64,000 bases of DNA. It comes from Darksidea phi. Lineage: Eukaryota > Ascomycota > Dothideomycetes > Pleosporales > Lentitheciaceae. Location: positions 1-64,000 of the forward strand of contig JASJFT010000239.1 in the NCBI GenBank assembly GCA_030770425.1, written 5' to 3'. Under the pieces are notes generated by a model, which saw nothing but the letters and a program-made list of their open reading frames with translations, made no database searches and was not told where the DNA came from. The position numbers were made by a program, and so were the translations under genes. This document shows, piece after piece, positions 40,577-64,000 of this stretch (its first letter is position 1; each line of letters begins with the position of its first letter).

Positions 40577-43362
40577 TTATCTCTTTTTCGAAATAAGGCC
40601 TTATCCTTAAGGGCCTAGTAAACGAATAATTAAGAAAAACGCTTTTTTAGAGAGGGGGGGGGGAGAGAAGAAGTAAAGGAGATAGATAAGTACCTATATC
40701 TATTACTTTCTACTCGAAAAACGATTTAACTAGTACCCTCTAGATTATTCTTAGAGTATATTAATATTATATAGCCCTATATATATCTACTTATTTTATT
40801 ATATAAATTATTATCTAAAAAATATTTTTTTAATATATATACTACGTAACGCGCTTAATATATCTAAAGAATATTATAGAATATATAAGAAGATACTAGT
40901 AATTTAGTTTTCTATATTATCTAGAAGTTATATACGCGTAACCCTACTAGGGGATAAGACTTACTTCTTCTACGTTCTTACTCGTAGTAAAGCGAGGCTA
41001 TAAGGGGATACTCTAAGCTTAAAGGTAATTACTATAGACTTTAAGTATTATACTACTCGTTTTAGTAGACTATAAAGGATAGGGGTCTATACTTAATATT
41101 AGTAATTTTTTTAAGTTCTTATCTTAACTAGTACCTCGTCTTCTAACTAGGGGCTAAGGAACTTATCTTATAATACGGCTTCTAGCTACTAGACTAGCTA
41201 TTTAGGTAGACCTAGCTTATTAGGGTACTTATTATAAAACTCTTTTACCTTTTAGACTATATTTATAAAATTACTTATTAAATAATAGATTAGATCTAAG
41301 TTATAGCCTATCTATTCTATTTAATAATAGAGCTTACTATAAACGATCCGGCTATTAAGGATATAAACTATCGGCTACTCGAGATACCTATTTACTTCTA
41401 TAGCTAGTTCTTTAAAGAGTACTTAACTAGATAATAGATCTTATATAGCTTTATATAATCTATTTATATAGAAAATATTATATATCTTTATATAAAAGAG
41501 TAACTAGACTATATAGAAGTTATATCTTTAGCTAATAATAAAATAAGATTCGTATATTTACTAGTCTAATTTTAGACTTAGCCTTAAGGTAATAAATTCC
41601 TTAGGTATAATATAGACTTAATCTCCTATATTAAAATCTAGGAGACGATATTTTTTATTAGCTTATTAGTTCTAGGCTTTCTAAGCTACTATAATATTAG
41701 CTTAGATATAGTTACGAACCTATTAGACTATATTAGTTTAGATTTTTATAAACTCTTAGACTACCTATATAGTTATATTATTTAGTAATTCGGAGGGTTT
41801 ATAAATACGTTCTTACTAGTTCTAATAGTAATAAGTCTTATAGTCGAATTCGATCTCGAATAGAAAAAATTCTATTATATTATATAGAAGAATTACCTAG
41901 ACCTAGTCTATACTAGGTAGAAGATTAGACTAGTTATTTTAATAGAAGTTTATAAAAGGATATAATTATTAGTCTAACTATTAATTAAAAACTTCTATAT
42001 TACTATTAGTTTATAAATAGTAAATTATAGATAATAACTAGTTAATTTCTACGAATCTATATAATTTCTTTATAAAGCCTAATATAAACTATAAATCTTA
42101 ATCTAAGACTATAGTATATAGAGGACTAAAAACTCGCTATATATATATATAGTAGAGAGTAGCTATATCTTTAGTAGTAATAGTCTTAAAATAGGGTAAT
42201 AAGAAAGTATATTTTAATAATCTATATATTACTATAAATATATTATTATATTTCTTATAATCCTTCGGGAAGCTTTTAAAGTTTATAGAGATATTCTCTT
42301 ATACCCTTTTAGGTATAGGGAGTAGTTTAAGAAGATCTAAAGTCTTATCTTAAGACTTATAACTTTATTAGTACTATTTATAATTCCTTATATAATATTT
42401 TATATCTTTATTTATTATACTCTAGTAGTATAGGTCTTTTAAGAGCCTAATAGTTTTCTTTATACCTAAGTAAATAGTAATCTATATAGTATATATTACC
42501 TAGATAAGATAGATTTTAAGAAATTCTACTTTAGGTACTACTAACTTCTCTTTTTAAAGGAGGAGTCTAGATAAGATTAAAGATAGATACTTATATTCTT
42601 AATAGACTAATTCTTACTCTAATTTAAGTATAGTATATATATAATTTTTATAAAGTATATAATTAAGAAGTAAGTAAGAGTAAGCTTTAGTTTTATACTT
42701 AAGATTCTAGGTATTAGTAGTAGCTATTAAGATAGCTATCGTAGTAAAGATCTATTTAGAGAAGATAAAAATATAAGTTCTAATAGCTTTATCTTTTTTC
42801 TTCTAAGTTTTTAATTCCTCTTATTTTTAGAAGAGAGTATTCGTAATAATATTAGTAGTCTTAGGGTAATAATAAATAGTATAGTAGTAGTCTACGAGCT
42901 TCTCGGCCTAGTAAGTCTATCGCGGGGTTAGTTTATACTTAGTTAAGAAATACTCTAGTACCTAGTAATTAGTAATAACTTAGAAGGGTTTATTTAGTTA
43001 TAATTCTATAAACTAAGCTCTCTATTTATTTAAACCCCTTATAACTATAAGTATCTCTTTATTATAAATCTTATAGTTTATTTCTATAAACTTTATTATC
43101 TTTATAAAGTAGACTATAGATTATTAGATTCTATTATCTTAAAGCTATATAAAGATATCTACTAGGATACTATTACTTATATTAGTTTCTATATAGATTC
43201 TATAGTAGGGCGAGTAATATCTTATAATAATATCTAAATATAGTAATATCTTACTTTTCTTAAATACGACTCGCTCTTTAGACTCGAAGGTATAGAATTT
43301 TTCCTTTTATAATAGTTAGATAAGCGGGTAGACTATACGACTATAATCTTTTAATTATTTAT

Positions 43363-44251
43363 TTAATTTAGATTTATATAGTAGAAGTCTCTTTAAAAGG
43401 TTTATACGAAATATAGTAGAAGTTTATATATAGTAAAAATACTATATCTATACCTTATATATAATAATAGAGCTATAGAGCTATATATAGTAATACTAAT
43501 AAGGTAATATTTCGAATATTAAGATACTAGACGAGAAATAATATATAATACCGAACTATAAAGTCTAGTTAGGAGATTAATAGTAATAGCGAGGAGTTAA
43601 TATACTAATACTATCTATAGTATAAAAATTACCTATAATAATACTAGTATTCTACTTACTATATCTATCTCTTATTCTTAGCTAGCTTTCTTATATCTAT
43701 CTCTTATCCTTAGCTAGCTTCCTTATATTAATACCTACTAACTATATATCTTTACCAACGATTATTTATAGCTATTAGTAGTTATCTATATTATATTTCT
43801 ATCTAAGGCCTTATATAATAAGGATAGATATTTCGTCTAGAGGTAGTTATACTATCTACGTAGACTAGAGAAAAAGCTTATATAGGAAGGATTATTATAA
43901 ATAGAGAAATCGACCTTCTTAGTATACTATAAAAGGAGTAAATACCTAATATAGAAGATAGAGCTAGTATCTATAGTAGATATAATACGAATAATAGCGT
44001 AGAGATAGAGGATAATAGGGATACCTAGCTAGAGAGGGTAGAGGATTTAGTATTATTAGCGCGTTTAACTATCTATATATATTATTAGTAAATTAGAAGC
44101 TATTATTATCGTATAGTTATTATCTATACTATTATATAAGATATCGAAATATTAAAATATAATAAGATAATTAGAATTATAAAAAATATAGCTAGTCTAA
44201 AAGCTAACGTAACGTTACGCCGGGTAGTAGCCTAAGCTCCTAGAGGAGAGG
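43363..44251. mobile_element. S2: RIP-mutated insertion with 15-bp TSD inside B2
   Basis: An 889-bp segment interrupts B2 relative to B1 and is flanked by the direct repeat cttttaattatttat (43,348-43,362 and 44,252-44,266). B1 shows the empty site as a single copy near 12,540-12,555. The first 265 bp (43,363-43,627) match the clean element at 53,807-54,067; almost all differences are C to T or G to A in this copy. The remaining 624 bp have no recognised match here. They contain a 32-bp tandem duplication (about 43,662-43,725) and no TIR or LTR. The long TSD argues against LTR or cut-and-paste elements and favours a LINE-mobilised (SINE-like) insertion, but there is no clear poly(A) tail. Confidence 0.75.
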
Positions 44252-47200
44252 CTTTTAATTATTTATAATAGTAGTTATAGAAGTCTAAATAAGCTTATAG
44301 TCCTTTTAGAATTATAAGTTTTTTCTAGTCTTTAATAGTTACTATCTTATTAGGGTTTATACGGATTCCTTTAGTACTAATAATAAAATTTAAAAACTTT
44401 ATCTAAATAACTATAAACTTACTCTTTTTAATATTAACTTATAGTTTAGTCTTTTTAAACTTATTTAAGATTTTATTTATATATTTCTTATACTTAAAAG
44501 GGTCTTCTAAGTAGATTAAAATATTATTTATATAGGTAGTATAGATCTTGTCGATTTTATTCTTAAGTACTTAATTAATATAGTACTAAAAGATTACTAG
44601 TCTATTATATAGTCTAAAAGATAGGATATAATATTTATAATTCTTATATTATATTTTAAAAGTTATAAGATCTTCTATATTAGGGTCTAATCTAATATAA
44701 TAGAAGACTTAATATATATCTAGCTTAGTAAAGATCTTTACTTTAGAAAGTTATATTAGTATCTTCTTAATTAAAGAAATAATTATAATATCTTTTTTTA
44801 TAACTATATTAATCTTTTAATAGTCGATATAAAATCTTTACCTCCCTTCTAGCTTCTTAGTAAATAAAATAAATAAGATAAAGTTAGTATTACTAATTAT
44901 AATAAAGCCCTTTTTTAGGTACTCTTCTAAGTAAGCTTTTAACTACTTTAAGTATTTAAGAAATATATTATAAAATAGACTTATATTAAGCTTACTTATA
45001 TTCTTCTTAAGAGTAATTTTATAGTTAATACTCTTCCTTTTAGAAAGTAGCTTATCTAAGTTAATCTTAGAGAAGTAGTCTAGAATAGCTTCTACGTAAC
45101 CTTTATAAGGGAGTTTTTCTATTATTATATCTTATACGTCCTATTCTACTAAGTCTTCTATTAAGTCTTTCGACTATTTATTTTTAATTAATAAATTAAC
45201 TTTATATAGGCTAGTAGCTTTTAGTATAACTTCTTCTTTATTTATAAGTTTTTATATTTTAGAAGGTTTAAGAAAAAATATATTAAACTTATTACTAATA
45301 ATTTACTCTAGTAGGTTATTAGAAATAAATATTACTTTTTTTTTCTTTTTATTATTTTTTTAGTAACCTTATTAATTTTTTTTAAATTTAGTACTTCTTA
45401 AACTACTATTAGTATTACTATCCGTATTCCTCTATATTTTCTTAAAAGTAGTTTACTAGTTCTTTATTATCTATAATAGAACTTTAGTAAACTTATAGAC
45501 CTCCTTCTAGAAAATTATAAGGGCTTTAATAGAAATTTTTAAACTAAGTATTAGATTCTTTTTAAGTAAATAAGTCTTCTTCTATACTTTAACTTATTAA
45601 TTAATTAGATTATTATAATATAAAGTATTATTCTAGTATTCTAGCTTTAACTTCGGATCTAGCTTCTCTATAATAATTAGGTTATATTTTATCTACTTTA
45701 AAATATTATCTAACTAGTATAAAGTCTAGTTATAATAGTCGATTAAGAACTAGATTTATTTAAAGAATTTTCTTCTAAGTATTATATTATAATACCCGAA
45801 CTTATAAAAGAGGAACTAGGTAGATATATCTTTTTCTTAGATTAATAGATTAGCTTAAATAGTTATATTAACTAAGTAACTATATTTTTTATTAAACTTA
45901 TTAAGGGGGATTAGTTTCTTTAGTTAATAAAAGATAGACTTTAACTTTTTCTTTACTATCTTTAAATATTTAAAGTAGACTAATAGGTACGTACTAGTAT
46001 TACTATCTACTAATCCTCTTAGCTATATAGTTAGGCTATTTACTACGAGTTAAATAGGGAGTATAAATAATTTTAAATTAATAAGTTATAGTATCTTAAT
46101 AAGTTATTAATAATTAAAGGATTTAATTACTCTTATATAGGCTATTAAAGAGAAGCTCTTCTTTAGTAACTTTTATTTTTTAATATTATAAAGGAGGTAT
46201 TAGAGTTATACTCTAAACTACTTTCCTCTTTATATAAAAAGTCTAAATAAGTTTCTTTCTTAGAATTATTAAAGAAGGTAGTATTAACTTTTACTTTTAT
46301 AGTATTCTATATTATTTTATATATAATATAATTAAGATAGTCTTACTATTTATTCCTTTTTTTATAATTAAAGTAATAGTTTTACTTCTTATACTTCTTA
46401 AAAGAGTAGTTATAAAGTTTAAAGGTATCTTTAAAGTAAATAGACTTTTTTTTTAATTTATTAAAAAAGAATCTATTTATAGTTAGTTACTTTCTCTTAG
46501 AAATAACTAATTAGTTACTTTAGACGAGTTAGATCTTTTAATACTAGTTATTCTTAAGTAGTACTTTATTAGCTAAAGTCGTATATTTATAAAGCTTACT
46601 AAAGATAGAATTATTATTATTAAATAGATTTATTTTATTTTTTAGTTCGAAGTAGAGCTTATTTATAAACTCTTCGTTCTACTAGTAGTAAGATAGATAA
46701 ACCTCTATTACTAGATACTTAAAATTTTTAATAAAGTTACTAACTTTATTAAATATATTTATATATAGTTAGTAGAATTTAACTTTTATCTTCTTCTTTA
46801 TATAGAAATCTTTATAGTATTTCTTAATATATTCTAATAGATTTATATTAGATATAAAGTCTACTTCTTCTTTTTTAGAATTTAGTTATATCTAAATATA
46901 ATCTTTTACTAGACTTACTAGTCGGGATATAATATAGACTTAATAGATTTTAGCTATCTACTAGAGGGTTTCTCGTACGTACTAGTTCTTATTAATAGTA
47001 AGTTTCTATTCTATATTATAGAGTTAGTTCTTTAACTTAGACTCTTTATTATTTTTAAATAAAGTAGAATTAGGATAGAATATAGTCTTCTAGAAGTTAG
47101 AGATTTATAAAGATTTATTTTAGTAGTTTTCTATAATATCTTCTTTCTAAATAAAAACCTATATTTTATTATTTAAGGTAATAGTTATAAACTCTAGTAA

Positions 47201-52588: not shown

Positions 52589-53806
52589 TAGTCAAGTCTT
52601 ACCTTTTCAGCCAGCCTAATTCTACAGTGTTTTCGACGCTATACAAATACTCTGAAAAAGAGCAAAAGGATATGAAAGTTTGTTAGAGGGAGAGACTACT
52701 CTACCAGCACGAAGTAGAAGATGCGATGTACTTCAGCCGTGTTAGACAAGCTAGTTGGCGAGCTAAGAACCTTAGAGGGCTGCCTGAACTGCTTCGTTGT
52801 CCTATCAGGTAGCAAGTGGCTCGATCGAGCGACGACCCCATTGGCTGGAGTGCTTTCAGCTATTCAGCCACGCCACTATAGTACCTGGCAACGAGTCTTG
52901 GACTTTCGATTTCTCTGGCACCTCTCTTTCAAGAATATTCACGCGAGCTACAGAAAAAAAGATGTTCTTCTGCCTCTTACTGCGGGATCCAATCCTACAA
53001 CCTTGGAACCGCCGCTATACTGGGTGAAGCTACAGGGATGGAGCCGCTGTGGCTAGGTTCAATAAACGTGATGCTGAAAGACTTTTAATCTATTAATCCA
53101 CCCGGTTCCATGCCATTTCTCTAAGATGTCGCACATATTTATCCCGTCAGAAGATATTGGATCGTAGCGATATGCAGCATACTGCATGGCCTGTATGATG
53201 TCATTATTGACGACGGCAGGCGAAAACGTTGCGGTAGCGGCAAGAAGCTGGAGACCGCACGAGTCGACCGTTTTCAGCTGCGCCACATGTGAAGTCTGAC
53301 CTCACTTATGCAAAGGATCGATCTGTTTCCCTTTAGCTACCTACCGAAGGAAAATCTCGCTTCACTCGTTCTAGGTTACTTGGGATAGGTTGACCTACTT
53401 GACAACGTGTTAGTCGGTGAAGGTGCGGAGAGCGGGGGTGGACCATGGTACGCGGTGCTTGTGGTTGTGCTACTGCACTCTTTCGCAGCTAGCCCCTCTG
53501 TGATTGCTGGTTTATGCGGCCGTGTTCGGCTCCAACTAGACGATCTCTTCGTCAAGACAGAATAACGAAGGGTTTCAGTCAGCCACCAACAGACGATGAT
53601 CCTCCTGGAAGCATATCAGACCAATGATTTCAGGATTTAGACGAGCTGAAGCGGACTTGCTTGCAAGACTCGTGAACGTGGTGAGCTGAATATGACGTGC
53701 AATTTCCAGCTGAAAAGCTTCACAGCTTAGCAGGGAGAGTCGTGATCGAGATTTTGGGTTCAGCCATAGGTCTATCAAGCAATTCAGCAGTCGAACACAG
53801 AGGTAT
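52589..53806. other. Normal-composition intergenic DNA after the RIP block
   Basis: CA and TG dinucleotides return abruptly after about 52,588. Short open frames exist, for example 111 codons on the plus strand at 52,721-53,056, 75 codons on the minus strand at 53,059-53,286 and 106 codons on the minus strand at 53,575-53,895. None has a recognisable domain or convincing splice context, and the last overlaps a mobile element. I see no supported gene here. Confidence 0.5.
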
Positions 53807-54067
53807 TTGATTTGGATTTGCATAGTGGTAGTCTCTTTAGAAGGTCCGCACGAAACACAGTAGGAGTTTGTACACAGTAGAGGTGCTATACCCACACCTT
53901 ATACACGATAATAGAGCTGTAGAGCTGTACACAGTACGACGAGGTGATGTTTCGAACATTGAGGCGCTGGACGAGAAATGACATGTGATTCCGAACCACA
54001 GAGCGTTGGGAGACCAACAGTGGTAGCGGGGAGTTAGCGCACCAACACTACCACCCACAGCATAAAA
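53807..54067. mobile_element. S1: clean 261-bp SINE-like element in the promoter of the 54.2-kb gene
   Basis: The element starts TTGATTTGGATTTGCATAG and ends CACAGCATAAAA. It is flanked by a perfect 14-bp direct repeat GAACACAGAGGTAT (53,793-53,806 and 54,068-54,081). It is homologous end to end with the first 265 bp of S2 at 43,363. It is not RIP-mutated, being shorter than the length RIP usually needs in well-studied fungi. It has no TIRs and no LTRs. Weak polymerase III-like boxes can be imagined (a tagtggtag motif near 53,824 and GTTTCGAAC near 53,949), but their spacing is larger than usual, so a SINE assignment rests on the long TSD and short A-rich end. Confidence 0.75.
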
Positions 54068-54078
54068 GAACACAGAGG

Positions 54079-54085
54079 TATAAAG
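54079..54085 (+). promoter_or_regulatory. TATA box of the 54.2-kb gene
   Basis: TATAAAG lies 107 bp before the start codon, followed by a pyrimidine-rich stretch (ctctccatctccc) typical of fungal transcription start regions. Its first three bases are the end of the right TSD of S1, so the element inserted exactly at this box. Confidence 0.55.
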
Positions 54086-54191: not shown

Positions 54192-54914
54192 ATGGCCACA
54201 TTCAAGATTGTCGTTCACAACAAAAGCGCTTCAATCCAAAACTACATGTTCTTCAATGCCCCTCCCGAGCAGGTCTTTGGATCAAAGCTGTATTCCAACG
54301 TCTGGGTCACCAAAACTGACGTCGACACTCCCCACGGCACAGCGACCCTGACTGTCCAAGAAAAGATGTTCGCAGTCTGCGGCACCGCTCCCTCGCCTTT
54401 AGCCGAAGGCGTCACAGTCAGTTCGAGCGACTCTGCGGAGGTGCAGCTCACGCAAGGGTCCACCGGCGGCACCATCGCCGCAGCAAAGGCGGCCAACGGT
54501 GGCATCACGATCGGCGCCACGACTCAAACACTGAGCCCCCCAGTGACAGACGCATACGGCATCAACTTGAACTCCTTCGATGCCGCAGCTTATCGTCAGT
54601 CCCCTTCAAGCTCTATCATCAAAGCAAGCTGACATTTTTTAGCCACCATCTTCGTCGGACACGGCAAGGACGACGGGACCGGCAACATCGTTCCCGTCTC
54701 TACCTGGGTCCCAACCTCCTTGTCCGACTACACCGTCCAGCCCCAAGTCGTCTTCTACATTGCGACGGGAGACTCTCAGCAGGGCACCTGTGTCGATGTG
54801 ACTGGCCATGGTCCAGTGGGAAAGATTGATTTCGCCCAGGCCAAACCGGGCCAGCTCACCGCTGATATCACTCAAAACGCCGACAACAGCTGGGGAGAGC
54901 CTGTGTTCAGCTGA
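54192..54914 (+). CDS. Hypothetical protein, 224 aa, one intron
   Basis: The start ATG at 54,192 begins MATFKIVVHNKSA; no upstream in-frame ATG precedes it. Exon 1 is 54,192-54,594 and exon 2 is 54,643-54,914. The 48-bp intron has donor GTCAGT, branch CTGAC and acceptor TTTTAG. Splicing joins DAAAY to TIFVGHGKD and gives 224 residues in frame. There is no signal peptide or membrane segment. The protein is rich in Gly, Ser, Thr and Val with alternating short strands (FKIVVHN, SNVWVTKT, GTATLTVQEK, PQVVFYIATGD), suggesting a beta-sandwich fold. It resembles a family of uncharacterised fungal proteins I recognise only by its general pattern (NKS..QNY.FFNAPP near the start, YxxQPxxVFYxATGD near the end). 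Function unknown. An S1 element lies directly upstream of its TATA box. Confidence 0.8.
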
Positions 54915-60659: not shown

Positions 60660-61928
60660 TTAACCATTCCAAGAATCTTTCCACAACCACAGCCAGCAAC
60701 CACGGCTAGTGTCCGTGTCTCCGAGTGTAGCAAATATGCCAAATGGTGTCATGATCCCCACCCAGGGCAGCCTCAGATCCATATCTTGAGATCTCTGGAT
60801 CAGTTGGAGGGCTCCTGAATTTTTCCAGACTTTTCCCGCGATTGCAAAATCGGTCATTGGACTGTCATGACTTGTTGATCTGAGGATAGTCGCGTCTGGG
60901 TCAGCTTCGCTGCGTGCGGTATGGAAACGAAGTCTGTGTATAGGTGTTTGAAAGGTGATTAGCGGTTTTGGCTGTGTTGACTCCTTTTGATGGTTCATGT
61001 ACCCAGACCACGATCCCTCCTCCAAAAATTCGGGGCTTGTCATTCGCAAAAGGTGACTGGTGTTGAAGTCGTGTGGATCGATGCCAACGGACTGGAAATC
61101 CAGCAACGAGAGGAGTGGAATATCGATAAAAGTCGGCGGATGAGGGAACGGCCGACCTCGCCGGTCGCTGAGGAAGCGCCAAGGTGATTTGGGGGCGAGA
61201 GCGGCTCGGAGTTCGATGCTAAAGGCGATAAGAGCGCGGTATGAATTGACGAAAAAGGCTGGAATATCTTGGATCCGCCAATCTGGCCGCGTATTACCTC
61301 GCAAAGCCACGTAAGACCAAATTCGGAGGCTCGATTGGGACATTTTCTGGACTTCTTCTCCAAGATCAAGCCCGTGTCGATGATGGAGAGCCGAGTAGAC
61401 GTGCTCCGCAAAGTTTTTAGAGATCTCCTTGGGGGAAAGCAATTGAGCCAAGATACAAAAGAGAAACGCTTGTTCCTCGGCCGGATTCATACGATCGAAT
61501 TGCTCCAGCAGCGAGTCGATATTTGCAACCAGCAGGAGTGGATCTGTCTCAGTGGTTAACATGCGTACGGCTCTCAGCGTGCAAGACTTGCGATGTTGCG
61601 CCATGAGGGCCGGCAACCACTGGACAATGCTCAGAGACTGGTCCGAGCAGATGGGATGGCCCACTAGTTCTCTCGAAAGATCGAGACGGTACCCCGTCCA
61701 AGGTAGTAGTCTCGATGGCGTCAAGACCTGGCTACAGCGGCATTTGATCGTGGACATTTCATGGCGGGCGTCGCATTCACTAAAATCGCAAAAGATGAAC
61801 CAATCGTGGCATGCGAGTCGGAGGGCGCGACTCGTCGCTTGGAGGTTTAGGACCGACTCGAACGGTCCATGGTGCGCAATTTGACGGATGATTTCCATCG
61901 GGAGATTCGCGAGAGTCGGCTCCGACAT
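60660..61928 (-). CDS. F-box domain protein, 422 aa
   Basis: An uninterrupted frame starts with MSEPTLANLPMEIIRQIAHH. The F-box lies at residues about 6-45 (LPMEIIRQI, then LNLQATSRALRLACHDW). F-box proteins link substrates to the SCF ubiquitin ligase through Skp1. The remaining 370 residues hold no leucine-rich or WD repeats that I can see, which is common in the large, poorly conserved F-box families of filamentous fungi. The frame extends 39 codons further upstream to 62,045, but a TATA box (62,019-62,026) lies inside that extension and the MSEP start sits at the expected place before the F-box, so I chose 61,928. There are no introns. The substrate is unknown. Confidence 0.85.
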   Translation of the reverse strand: MSEPTLANLPMEIIRQIAHHGPFESVLNLQATSRALRLACHDWFIFCDFSECDARHEMSTIKCRCSQVLTPSRLLPWTGYRLDLSRELVGHPICSDQSLSIVQWLPALMAQHRKSCTLRAVRMLTTETDPLLLVANIDSLLEQFDRMNPAEEQAFLFCILAQLLSPKEISKNFAEHVYSALHHRHGLDLGEEVQKMSQSSLRIWSYVALRGNTRPDWRIQDIPAFFVNSYRALIAFSIELRAALAPKSPWRFLSDRRGRPFPHPPTFIDIPLLSLLDFQSVGIDPHDFNTSHLLRMTSPEFLEEGSWSGYMNHQKESTQPKPLITFQTPIHRLRFHTARSEADPDATILRSTSHDSPMTDFAIAGKVWKNSGALQLIQRSQDMDLRLPWVGIMTPFGIFATLGDTDTSRGCWLWLWKDSWNG

Positions 61929-62018
61929 GTCGGCGACGTTGAGGTGTTGTGATGAGATGAACGAAGGGTGAGGCTGGAGAGGATGGACCAACCAGAGTAA
62001 AAACCAAAGCGAGCGGAC

Positions 62019-62026
62019 TTTATATA
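62019..62026 (-). promoter_or_regulatory. TATA box of the F-box gene
   Basis: TATATAAA on the minus strand, about 91 bp before the ATG at 61,928. It supports the downstream start codon rather than the upstream one at 62,045. Confidence 0.55.
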
Positions 62027-62045
62027 CCCCGACACCGAAAAACAC

Positions 62046-62805: not shown

Positions 62806-64000
62806 ATGCGTCTTCTGCGGGCTGATGAAAGCGGCGAGCTCAGCCTCGTCGAACACACAGGCAGAGACACACCTCGATATGCGATCCTTTCGCATACCTG
62901 GGGAGCTGACGGTGATGAGGTCACCTTTAGAGACATAGTTGAAGGCGGAGGCAAGAGCAAACCGGGTTATCGCAAGCTTAGCTTCTGCGCGACGCAAGCT
63001 GCGAGCGACGGCCTACAGCTGTTCTGGGTGGATACCTGCTGCATTGACAAATCAAGCAGCTCAGAGCTTCAAGAAGCCATCAACTTGATGTACCAATGGT
63101 ACCATAAGGCTGATAAGTGCTACGTTTATCTATCCGATGTTACTACTGTTGGGTCGGCTGAGAGTGGCTTGTCAACCCAGCAGGCGTGGAAGGAAGCATT
63201 TCAAGACAGCAGATGGTTCTCTCGGGGATGGACGCTCCAGGAGCTCCTTGCCCCGATGTCCGTCGAGTTCTTTTCTACCAACGGCGAGCGCCTTGGCAGT
63301 AAGGTTTCGCTCCTATGGGAGATTCATACTGTTACAGGAATACCTCCAGAAGCTCTTCGGGGCGCACCTCTCCGTCAATTCAGTATCGAAACGCGACTGT
63401 CATGGGTAGGAGGACGCAAGACCAAACGTGAAGAGGACAGAGCGTACGCGCTACTAGGCATATTCGACGTCTATATGCCTCTTCTCTATGGGGAAGGGGA
63501 GAGCAACGCATTCAGACGGCTCCGAGAGGAGATCCAGAAGTCGCCAAGGTGTTTTTTAGAGCAGCAGGCTTCGACTCTGACCAATCATGCGAGGCCCAAC
63601 ATCGTCGGAGGTGTAGAACGGGTGTTCGAAGGTCCGTGAGGCTCTTTATTGATAGTGTTTATACAGCTATACGATTCTAATGGAGTGTGGATAGACTGGA
63701 TACTACACGTCAAGTGCTGACAACATATAGCGCCCTGGGTTGTTGCACTGCCACGACCACCGTCTTTCGTTGGACGAGAGACTGAGCTTGCTCGACTTCA
63801 TGCACATATCTCATCGGCAACTTCTCAACGGCTGGCGATATACGGCCTGGGCGGCTGTGGGAAGACTGCACTCGCTCTAGAAACTGCGTATCGCGTGAAG
63901 GAACACCAGCCCGCCTGCGCCGTTTTCTGGGTTCCGGCTGTCAGTCGCGAAAGTTTCGAGCAGTCGTACAAAGACATAGGGACGGCACTAAACATACCCG
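62806..64000 (+). CDS. HET domain / NB-ARC protein (fungal NLR-like), 5' part
   Basis: Exon 1 is 62,806-63,631; exon 2 starts at 63,731 and runs off the window. The 99-bp intron has donor GTCCGT and acceptor CATATAG, and restores the frame (VFE joined to APWVVALPRPP). The N-terminal HET domain covers residues about 25-165: AILSHTWG at 26-33, FWVDTCCIDK at 73-82, RGWTLQELLAP at 140-150, then DRAYALLGIFDVYMPLLYGEG at 211-231. The NB-ARC domain begins at FVGRETEL, with its P-loop GLGGCGKT at residues 314-321. HET domains trigger cell death in heterokaryon incompatibility, and the NB-ARC acts as an oligomerising switch. The usual C-terminal TPR, WD40 or ankyrin sensor would lie beyond 64,000. It is intact as far as visible. 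Confidence 0.9.

What the first reader, a model, noticed from the sequence alone, without database searches (positions are those of the whole stretch)
53793..54081. Undescribed-looking 261-bp element with 14-bp TSD inserted exactly at a gene's TATA box
The sequence 53,807-54,067 is bounded by a perfect 14-bp direct repeat (GAACACAGAGGTAT), and both ends coincide with the limits of homology to a second copy at 43,363. Removing the element and one repeat rebuilds a continuous promoter in which the last three bases of the target form the TATAAAG box, 107 bp before the ATG at 54,192. The insertion therefore moved the original upstream control sequence 275 bp away and put element sequence next to the TATA box. 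TSDs of 14-15 bp point to LINE-type retrotransposition (SINE-like), but no family is recognised.
Basis: partly seen in the sequence, partly recalled or inferred. Interest (0 to 1): 0.8.

Follow-up and report, generated by a model that had tools for sequence, protein, structure and literature searches.

The report
Truncated copy of fungal jumping element
The 261-base insertion in front of this fungal gene is real, but it is only the tail end of a roughly 1.1-kb jumping element that sits at hundreds of places in the genome and prefers to land in short TATA sequences, so its place at the gene's TATA box reflects that habit more than promoter targeting.

Summary
In detail: 53,807-54,067 is flanked by a perfect 14-bp repeat, and the right-hand copy ends in the TAT of a TATAAAG box before a conserved 146-aa gene. 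The interpretation needs three changes. (1) The 261 bp are not the element. They are a 5'-truncated copy, on the MINUS strand, of a 1.04-1.25 kb repeat with fixed ends (5' CCCCTCCCCCAGGAGC, 3' GCAAATCCAAATCAA). The "second copy" runs 43,363-44,251 and has its own 15-bp TSD. (2) The family is abundant: 285 RIP-tolerant 3' ends in the 51-Mb genome, control 0. TSDs of 13-17 bp were found for 26 of 54 distinct 3' ends. A nested insertion gives a clean empty site, a second a weaker one. (3) The TATA position fits the target preference: 26 of 26 sites read NAT^A, 20 of 26 TAT^A (38% expected), only 5 of 26 TATAWA. One fixed end, variable truncation at the other, a fixed nick motif and no RT/endonuclease frame point to LINE-driven target-primed reverse transcription of a non-autonomous element; no tRNA, 5S or 7SL part was found. 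No LINE locus that I could compare shares its 3' end. It carries a RIP-broken antisense frame of ~155 codons with one metagenomic homologue. New member of a known kind.

The parts
53807..54067 (-). 5'-truncated copy (3'-terminal 261 bp) of the element; element 3' end at 53,807, truncated 5' end at 54,067
53793..53806 (.). 14-bp target site duplication, copy next to the element's 3' end
54068..54081 (.). 14-bp target site duplication, copy next to the truncated 5' end; its last 3 bases (TAT) are the start of TATAAAG
54079..54085 (+). TATAAAG, probable TATA box of the gene at 54,192 and the NAT^A target site (nick between 54,081 and 54,082 on the + strand); intact after insertion
   Evidence: sequence; family target motif; promoter role inferred
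54192..54632 (+). gene of 146 codons, no Pfam domain, with homologues in other fungal or environmental sequence
43363..44251 (-). second, strongly RIP-mutated copy (889 bp) reaching the family's 5' end, lacking about consensus 486-706
43348..43362 (.). 15-bp target site duplication of the second copy (3'-end side)
44252..44266 (.). 15-bp target site duplication of the second copy (5'-end side)

Best explanation
53,807-54,067 is a 5'-truncated insertion of a multicopy, non-autonomous non-LTR retroelement whose RNA reads on the window's minus strand. Inferred mechanism: an endonuclease, presumably of a LINE, nicked the + strand at TAT^AAAG (family motif NAT^A); the freed 3' end primed reverse transcription at the RNA's 3' end (...GCAAATCCAAATCAA); synthesis stopped after 261 nt; the other strand was cut 14 bp away and repair made the 14-bp duplication. 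The TATA box survives in the right-hand TSD copy; upstream sequence is pushed 275 bp away. Shown: family, ends, TSDs, truncation, target motif, empty site by nesting. Inferred: the enzyme source, the RNA intermediate, any effect on the gene.
For: Of 26 copies with TSDs, all share the 3' end, 18 reach the same 5' end (CCCCTCCCCC) and 8 stop at eight different points, 219-550 bp from the 3' end; two more of 104 bp turned up among 20 sampled sites. TSD lengths 15 (13), 14 (10), 13 (2), 17 (1); 25 perfect, one with a mismatch. Sense strand: T before the nick 26 of 26; after it A 54 of 54, T 53 of 54, A 40 of 54; the motif sits at the fixed end, where target priming needs it. Other strand: NAT^A 26 of 26, TAT^A 20 of 26 against 132 of 343 NATA sites in the flanks, p = 7.6e-5. 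Nested copy on C470: taking out the insert and one 14-bp repeat leaves an older copy that aligns without a gap across the junction. 285 RIP-tolerant 3' ends, control 0. I saw no RT or endonuclease frame in the copies read.
Against: No LINE locus that I could compare shares the 3' end, though six contigs with LINE-like hits were not compared. 28 of 54 3' ends gave no TSD; many of those loci have only 400 bp of flank, too little to reach the 5' end. No relative's empty site was available for the window insertion, and the gene's DNA is single-copy here. The antisense frame of about 155 codons is not explained by this model.
Confidence: 0.92

Rival explanations
1. A MITE or other cut-and-paste DNA transposon with long TSDs.
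For: Short, multicopy, constant TSD length (mostly 14-15 bp).
Against: The two ends (CCCCTCCCCCAGGAGC and GCAAATCCAAATCAA) are not inverted repeats of each other (reading); truncation affects one end only, with TSDs intact.
Confidence: 0.02
2. A promoter-targeting element: its machinery finds TATA boxes of genes as such, for example through the transcription machinery.
For: The window insertion splits exactly at TATAAAG; 20 of 26 sites read TAT^A; flank GC 0.34-0.50, so these copies are mostly outside AT-rich repeats (25 copies).
Against: Only 5 of 26 sites match TATAWA. ORFs of 80 codons or more starting 20-400 bp from the site: 5 of 25 on the TATA side, 3 of 25 on the other, with unequal flank lengths. 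Copies also sit inside older copies of the family.
Confidence: 0.06
3. A true Pol III SINE with a tRNA- or 5S-derived head.
For: Loose A-box-like (consensus 825) and B-box-like (957) matches.
Against: No tRNA by ARAGORN in window or consensus; no Rfam match in the window at gathering score or in three full-length loci at E up to 1; TTTTT runs inside the element would stop Pol III; boxes are 132 bp apart and by my own arithmetic (no call) such a loose B-box is expected by chance about 0.3 times per strand.
Confidence: 0.04
4. The coding (+) strand of the antisense frame is the mobilised RNA, with truncation at its 3' end.
For: A frame of about 155 codons on that strand with a metagenomic homologue at 75%.
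Against: Nick motif and constant end lie at the opposite end from what that needs; no poly(A) at the GGGGGAGGGG end; no third-position excess of transversions in 25 copies (14/12/16 of 157 columns).
Confidence: 0.03

Closest known systems
Eg-R1 / BG_Non-LTR elements of Blumeria (PMC6022598, passages seen)
   Same: Non-autonomous fungal non-LTR element, high copy number, no genomic poly(A) tail, no A/B boxes according to the paper, possible small ORF.
   Different: According to the passages it carries AATAAA and the ROPIP1 peptide is read from its own transcript; here no AATAAA in the consensus and the ORF is antisense. The passages report no TSD (0 hits for 'target site'). Sequence not compared.
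Mg-SINE with its LINE MGL, and WEIRD/MINE chimeras, Magnaporthe grisea (PMC2104539, abstract and passages seen)
   Same: LINE-driven, 5'-truncated copies, direct repeats of 10-20 bp (12 and 14 bp in two cases).
   Different: Mg-SINE shares its 3' end with MGL; here no partner found among loci compared. Mg-SINE is tRNA-derived (PMC5063351).
AfuSINE families of Aspergillus fumigatus (PMC5063351, passages seen)
   Same: Non-autonomous, TSDs (4-14 bp), one family with a 3' end like a Tad1 LINE.
   Different: 140-493 bp, low copy, tRNA- or 5S-derived with Pol III boxes.
Tad1-clade LINEs (TSDs of 14-17 bp: recalled, no call)
   Same: TSD length; Tad-like LINE remnants exist in this genome (clade assigned by eye, not by a tree).
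   Different: The element has no EN or RT frame and no shared 3' end was seen.

Membership tests
LINE-mobilised (TPRT) retroelement | Constant 3' end with variable 5' truncation | tested here: met
   26 of 26 TSD copies share the 3' end (they were found by it); 8 of 26 truncated at eight points, 18 reach one 5' end; two more at 104 bp
LINE-mobilised (TPRT) retroelement | Target site duplications created by insertion | tested here: met
   26 of 54 3' ends; empty site by nesting on C470, weaker on L096
LINE-mobilised (TPRT) retroelement | Endonuclease motif at the priming end | tested here: met
   T|AT in 26 of 26 5' copies
LINE-mobilised (TPRT) retroelement | Partner LINE with the same 3' end | tested here: inconclusive
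   None in L048-L077 (+-1.5 kb), L053, L108-L112, LINE part of L113; C223, C126, C412, C99, C40, C83 not compared
SINE (strict) | Pol III head from tRNA, 5S or 7SL | tested here: not met
SINE (strict) | Length under about 700 bp | tested here: not met
   15 of 18 copies with TSD and full 5' end are 1,042-1,252 bp; the other 3 (539, 555, 889) lack internal parts
Non-autonomous element | No RT or endonuclease frame | tested here: met
   No such frame seen in the 9 copies (output partly cut) or the consensus; longest is the antisense frame, no Pfam match
MITE | Terminal inverted repeats | tested here: not met
   Ends read are not inverted repeats
Eg-R1-like Pol II non-LTR class | Pol II transcription, polyadenylated RNA | not testable with these tools
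   No RNA data; AATAAA absent from the consensus

The most novel reading that the evidence does not exclude
A fungal non-LTR element family whose borrowed endonuclease cuts TAT^A, so that it seeds TATA boxes with promoter-adjacent insertions while leaving the box intact, and which carries, antisense to its own mobile RNA, a protein frame kept in another genome: a two-way element whose antisense gene would be carried, and perhaps expressed, wherever it lands.
Probability: 0.08. Interest if true: 0.7.

Novelty: new member of a known kind. Interest (0 to 1): 0.33.

Why it matters
It shows how an apparently exact promoter hit can come from simple nick-site preference, gives a fungal non-autonomous family with readable ends, TSDs, truncations and nested empty sites, and offers a lead that short copies escape RIP, so that such fragments stay unmutated next to genes. 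The antisense frame is the one feature that I cannot place.

Tried and rejected
Whole-element reading of the 261 bp: rejected by longer copies. MITE, strict SINE, coding-strand RNA: see rivals. Partner LINE by shared 3' end: none found. Selection on the antisense frame: no third-position excess; structure model poor (mean pLDDT 49.9), so not searched; no Pfam or PDB match. Stops in that frame: 125 of 190 are TAG at columns where CAG or TGG is commonest, as RIP predicts; the 25 rows were chosen as near-full-length matches, which favours kept frames. RIP against length: copies under 450 bp 0.048 (n=5), 450-800 bp 0.115 (n=5), 800 bp or more 0.333 (n=22), p=0.003, but the short ones were picked by likeness to the unmutated window copy. 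A systematic sample of 20 (two list places near contig starts swapped for neighbours) gave 2 short copies at 0.12 and 0.0 against 17 others at 0.12-1.0, p=0.052; L116, cut by a contig end, was left out. So this stays a lead. F-box protein search for the species: no hit. Literature: seven searches ran, two of them empty; no listing named this family, but sequence cannot be searched there and species and family name are unknown, so absence from print is not shown.

Full report
Setting. The window is G000:C156:1-64000 of a 51.35-Mb, 477-contig genome. GC is 0.15-0.30 over most of 1-53 kb and about 0.5 from 53 kb on, with C-to-T/G-to-A changes at CpA/TpG sites that I read as RIP. The gene at 54,192 has a 93% match (74% of its length) in Westerdykella ornata, Pleosporales, Sporormiaceae, so the host is probably a relative; the species was not identified.

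Observation. The 14-bp repeat, TATAAAG and ATG are as described. Removing 275 bp (element plus one repeat) leaves a plausible promoter, with 63% C+T between TATAAAG and ATG.

The family. A DNA search with the 261 bp gave 41 matches (40 of 879 first-look candidates scored, so a lower bound). I fetched 39 places with 400 bp of flank. The left end is the same in nearly all; the right end is not: most copies run on past base 261. Longer loci showed homology over about 1.2 kb. TSDs then placed the true far end at CCCCTCCCCCAGGAGC. A search with the 5' 160 bp gave 40 matches, 40 of 207 candidates scored. In the 30 loci cut out, 32 5' ends were found, and 15 of the 32 had a TSD next to a recognised 3' tail; 12 had no tail in reach of my pattern and 5 had a tail but no TSD.

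Ends, TSDs and truncation. Over the loci held then plus the window there were 54 distinct 3' ends, 26 with a TSD: 15 bp (13), 14 bp (10), 13 bp (2), 17 bp (1); 25 perfect, one with a mismatch. 18 of the 26 begin at the CCCC end (15 are 1,042-1,252 bp; 539, 555 and 889 bp copies lack internal parts) and 8 are truncated (219, 248, 261, 299, 358, 510, 518, 550 bp). Many of the 28 without TSD have too little flank. The window copy is one of the 8; the 43-kb copy is one of the 18, with about consensus 486-706 missing.

Target. In the element's sense the base before the TSD is T in 26 of 26, and the TSD starts A (54 of 54), T (53 of 54), A (40 of 54). On the window's + strand this is NAT^A, TAT^A in 20 of 26 against 132 of 343 NATA sites in flanks of 25 copies (p = 7.6e-5), and TATAWA in 5 of 26. 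The two 104-bp copies and the nested copy also read T|ATA. Since the fixed motif is in the 5' TSD copy too, it belongs to the target, not to the element.

Empty sites. On C470 a full-length copy lies inside an older one. Its TSD is ATACACGATAATAG, and flanks joined with one TSD align to the family sequence without a gap across the junction. L096 is a second, weaker case with small gaps. The window's own site could not be tested: the gene's DNA is single-copy and no relatives are held for this genome.

Abundance and age. A RIP-tolerant 21-base 3' end pattern occurs 285 times, the reversed control 0 times (the pattern demands AT after the tail). Away from RIP sites, 48 of 53 copies differ from the inferred tail at 3% or less, so much of the family spread recently.

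What it is. No RT or endonuclease frame was seen; no tRNA, Rfam or 5S match; internal TTTTT runs. Fixed 3' end, 5' truncation, TSDs and a motif at the priming end are hallmarks of LINE-driven target-primed reverse transcription (described for fungal MGL in passages of PMC2104539). LINE-like loci are few: C323, C65, C433, C440, C223 and fragments on C126, C412, C99, C40, C83. Those compared share no 3' end; the C323 locus starts at the contig end, so its LINE 3' end may be missing. The partner is thus unknown.

The antisense frame. On the strand opposite the mobile RNA lies a frame of about 155 codons. It has 153 matches in this genome (150 of 296 candidates scored), most with several TAG stops, and one homologue in 5.8 billion proteins, P0001 from a 936-bp metagenomic contig, 75% identical to the longest open piece. 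Among 25 near-complete copies there is no third-position excess of transversions (14/12/16 columns). So a conserved frame between genomes is suggested, selection within this genome is not shown.

Effect on the gene. Inferred only: the box stays, 14 bp upstream of it stay, further upstream sequence moves 275 bp away and element sequence takes its place. No expression data.

Verdict. Real insertion, misjudged unit. A new member of a known kind, with a target habit that explains the TATA coincidence.

Noticed in passing
L004:1944-2363 (+) and homologous places in other copies: Frame of about 155 codons antisense to the element's mobile RNA; 75% identical metagenomic protein P0001; stops mostly TAG at CAG/TGG columns.
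   Followed up: partly
G000 contig starts C29, C42, C73, C80, C85, C88, C91: 7 of the 100 listed 3' ends lie within the first 122 bases of a contig, so this repeat probably breaks the assembly.
   Followed up: no
L128 and L135: Two unrelated insertions are both truncated at exactly 104 bp, with TSDs of 12 and 15 bp; a possible stop site of reverse transcription.
   Followed up: no
window 43363-44251: Second copy has all 34 of 34 scored RIP sites mutated, the window's 261-bp copy 1 of 33.
   Followed up: partly
L113 (C433:185500-190500): RIP-damaged LINE-like remnant directly downstream of a full-length copy of the element, without a shared 3' end.
   Followed up: partly
window 62806-63639 (+) and 60660-62045 (-): HET-domain gene (Pfam E 1.1e-14) and a weak F-box match below Pfam's cut-off.
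   Followed up: no
L083/L106 (C208): Two 5' ends of the element 471 bp apart on one strand, a tandem or nested arrangement.
   Followed up: no
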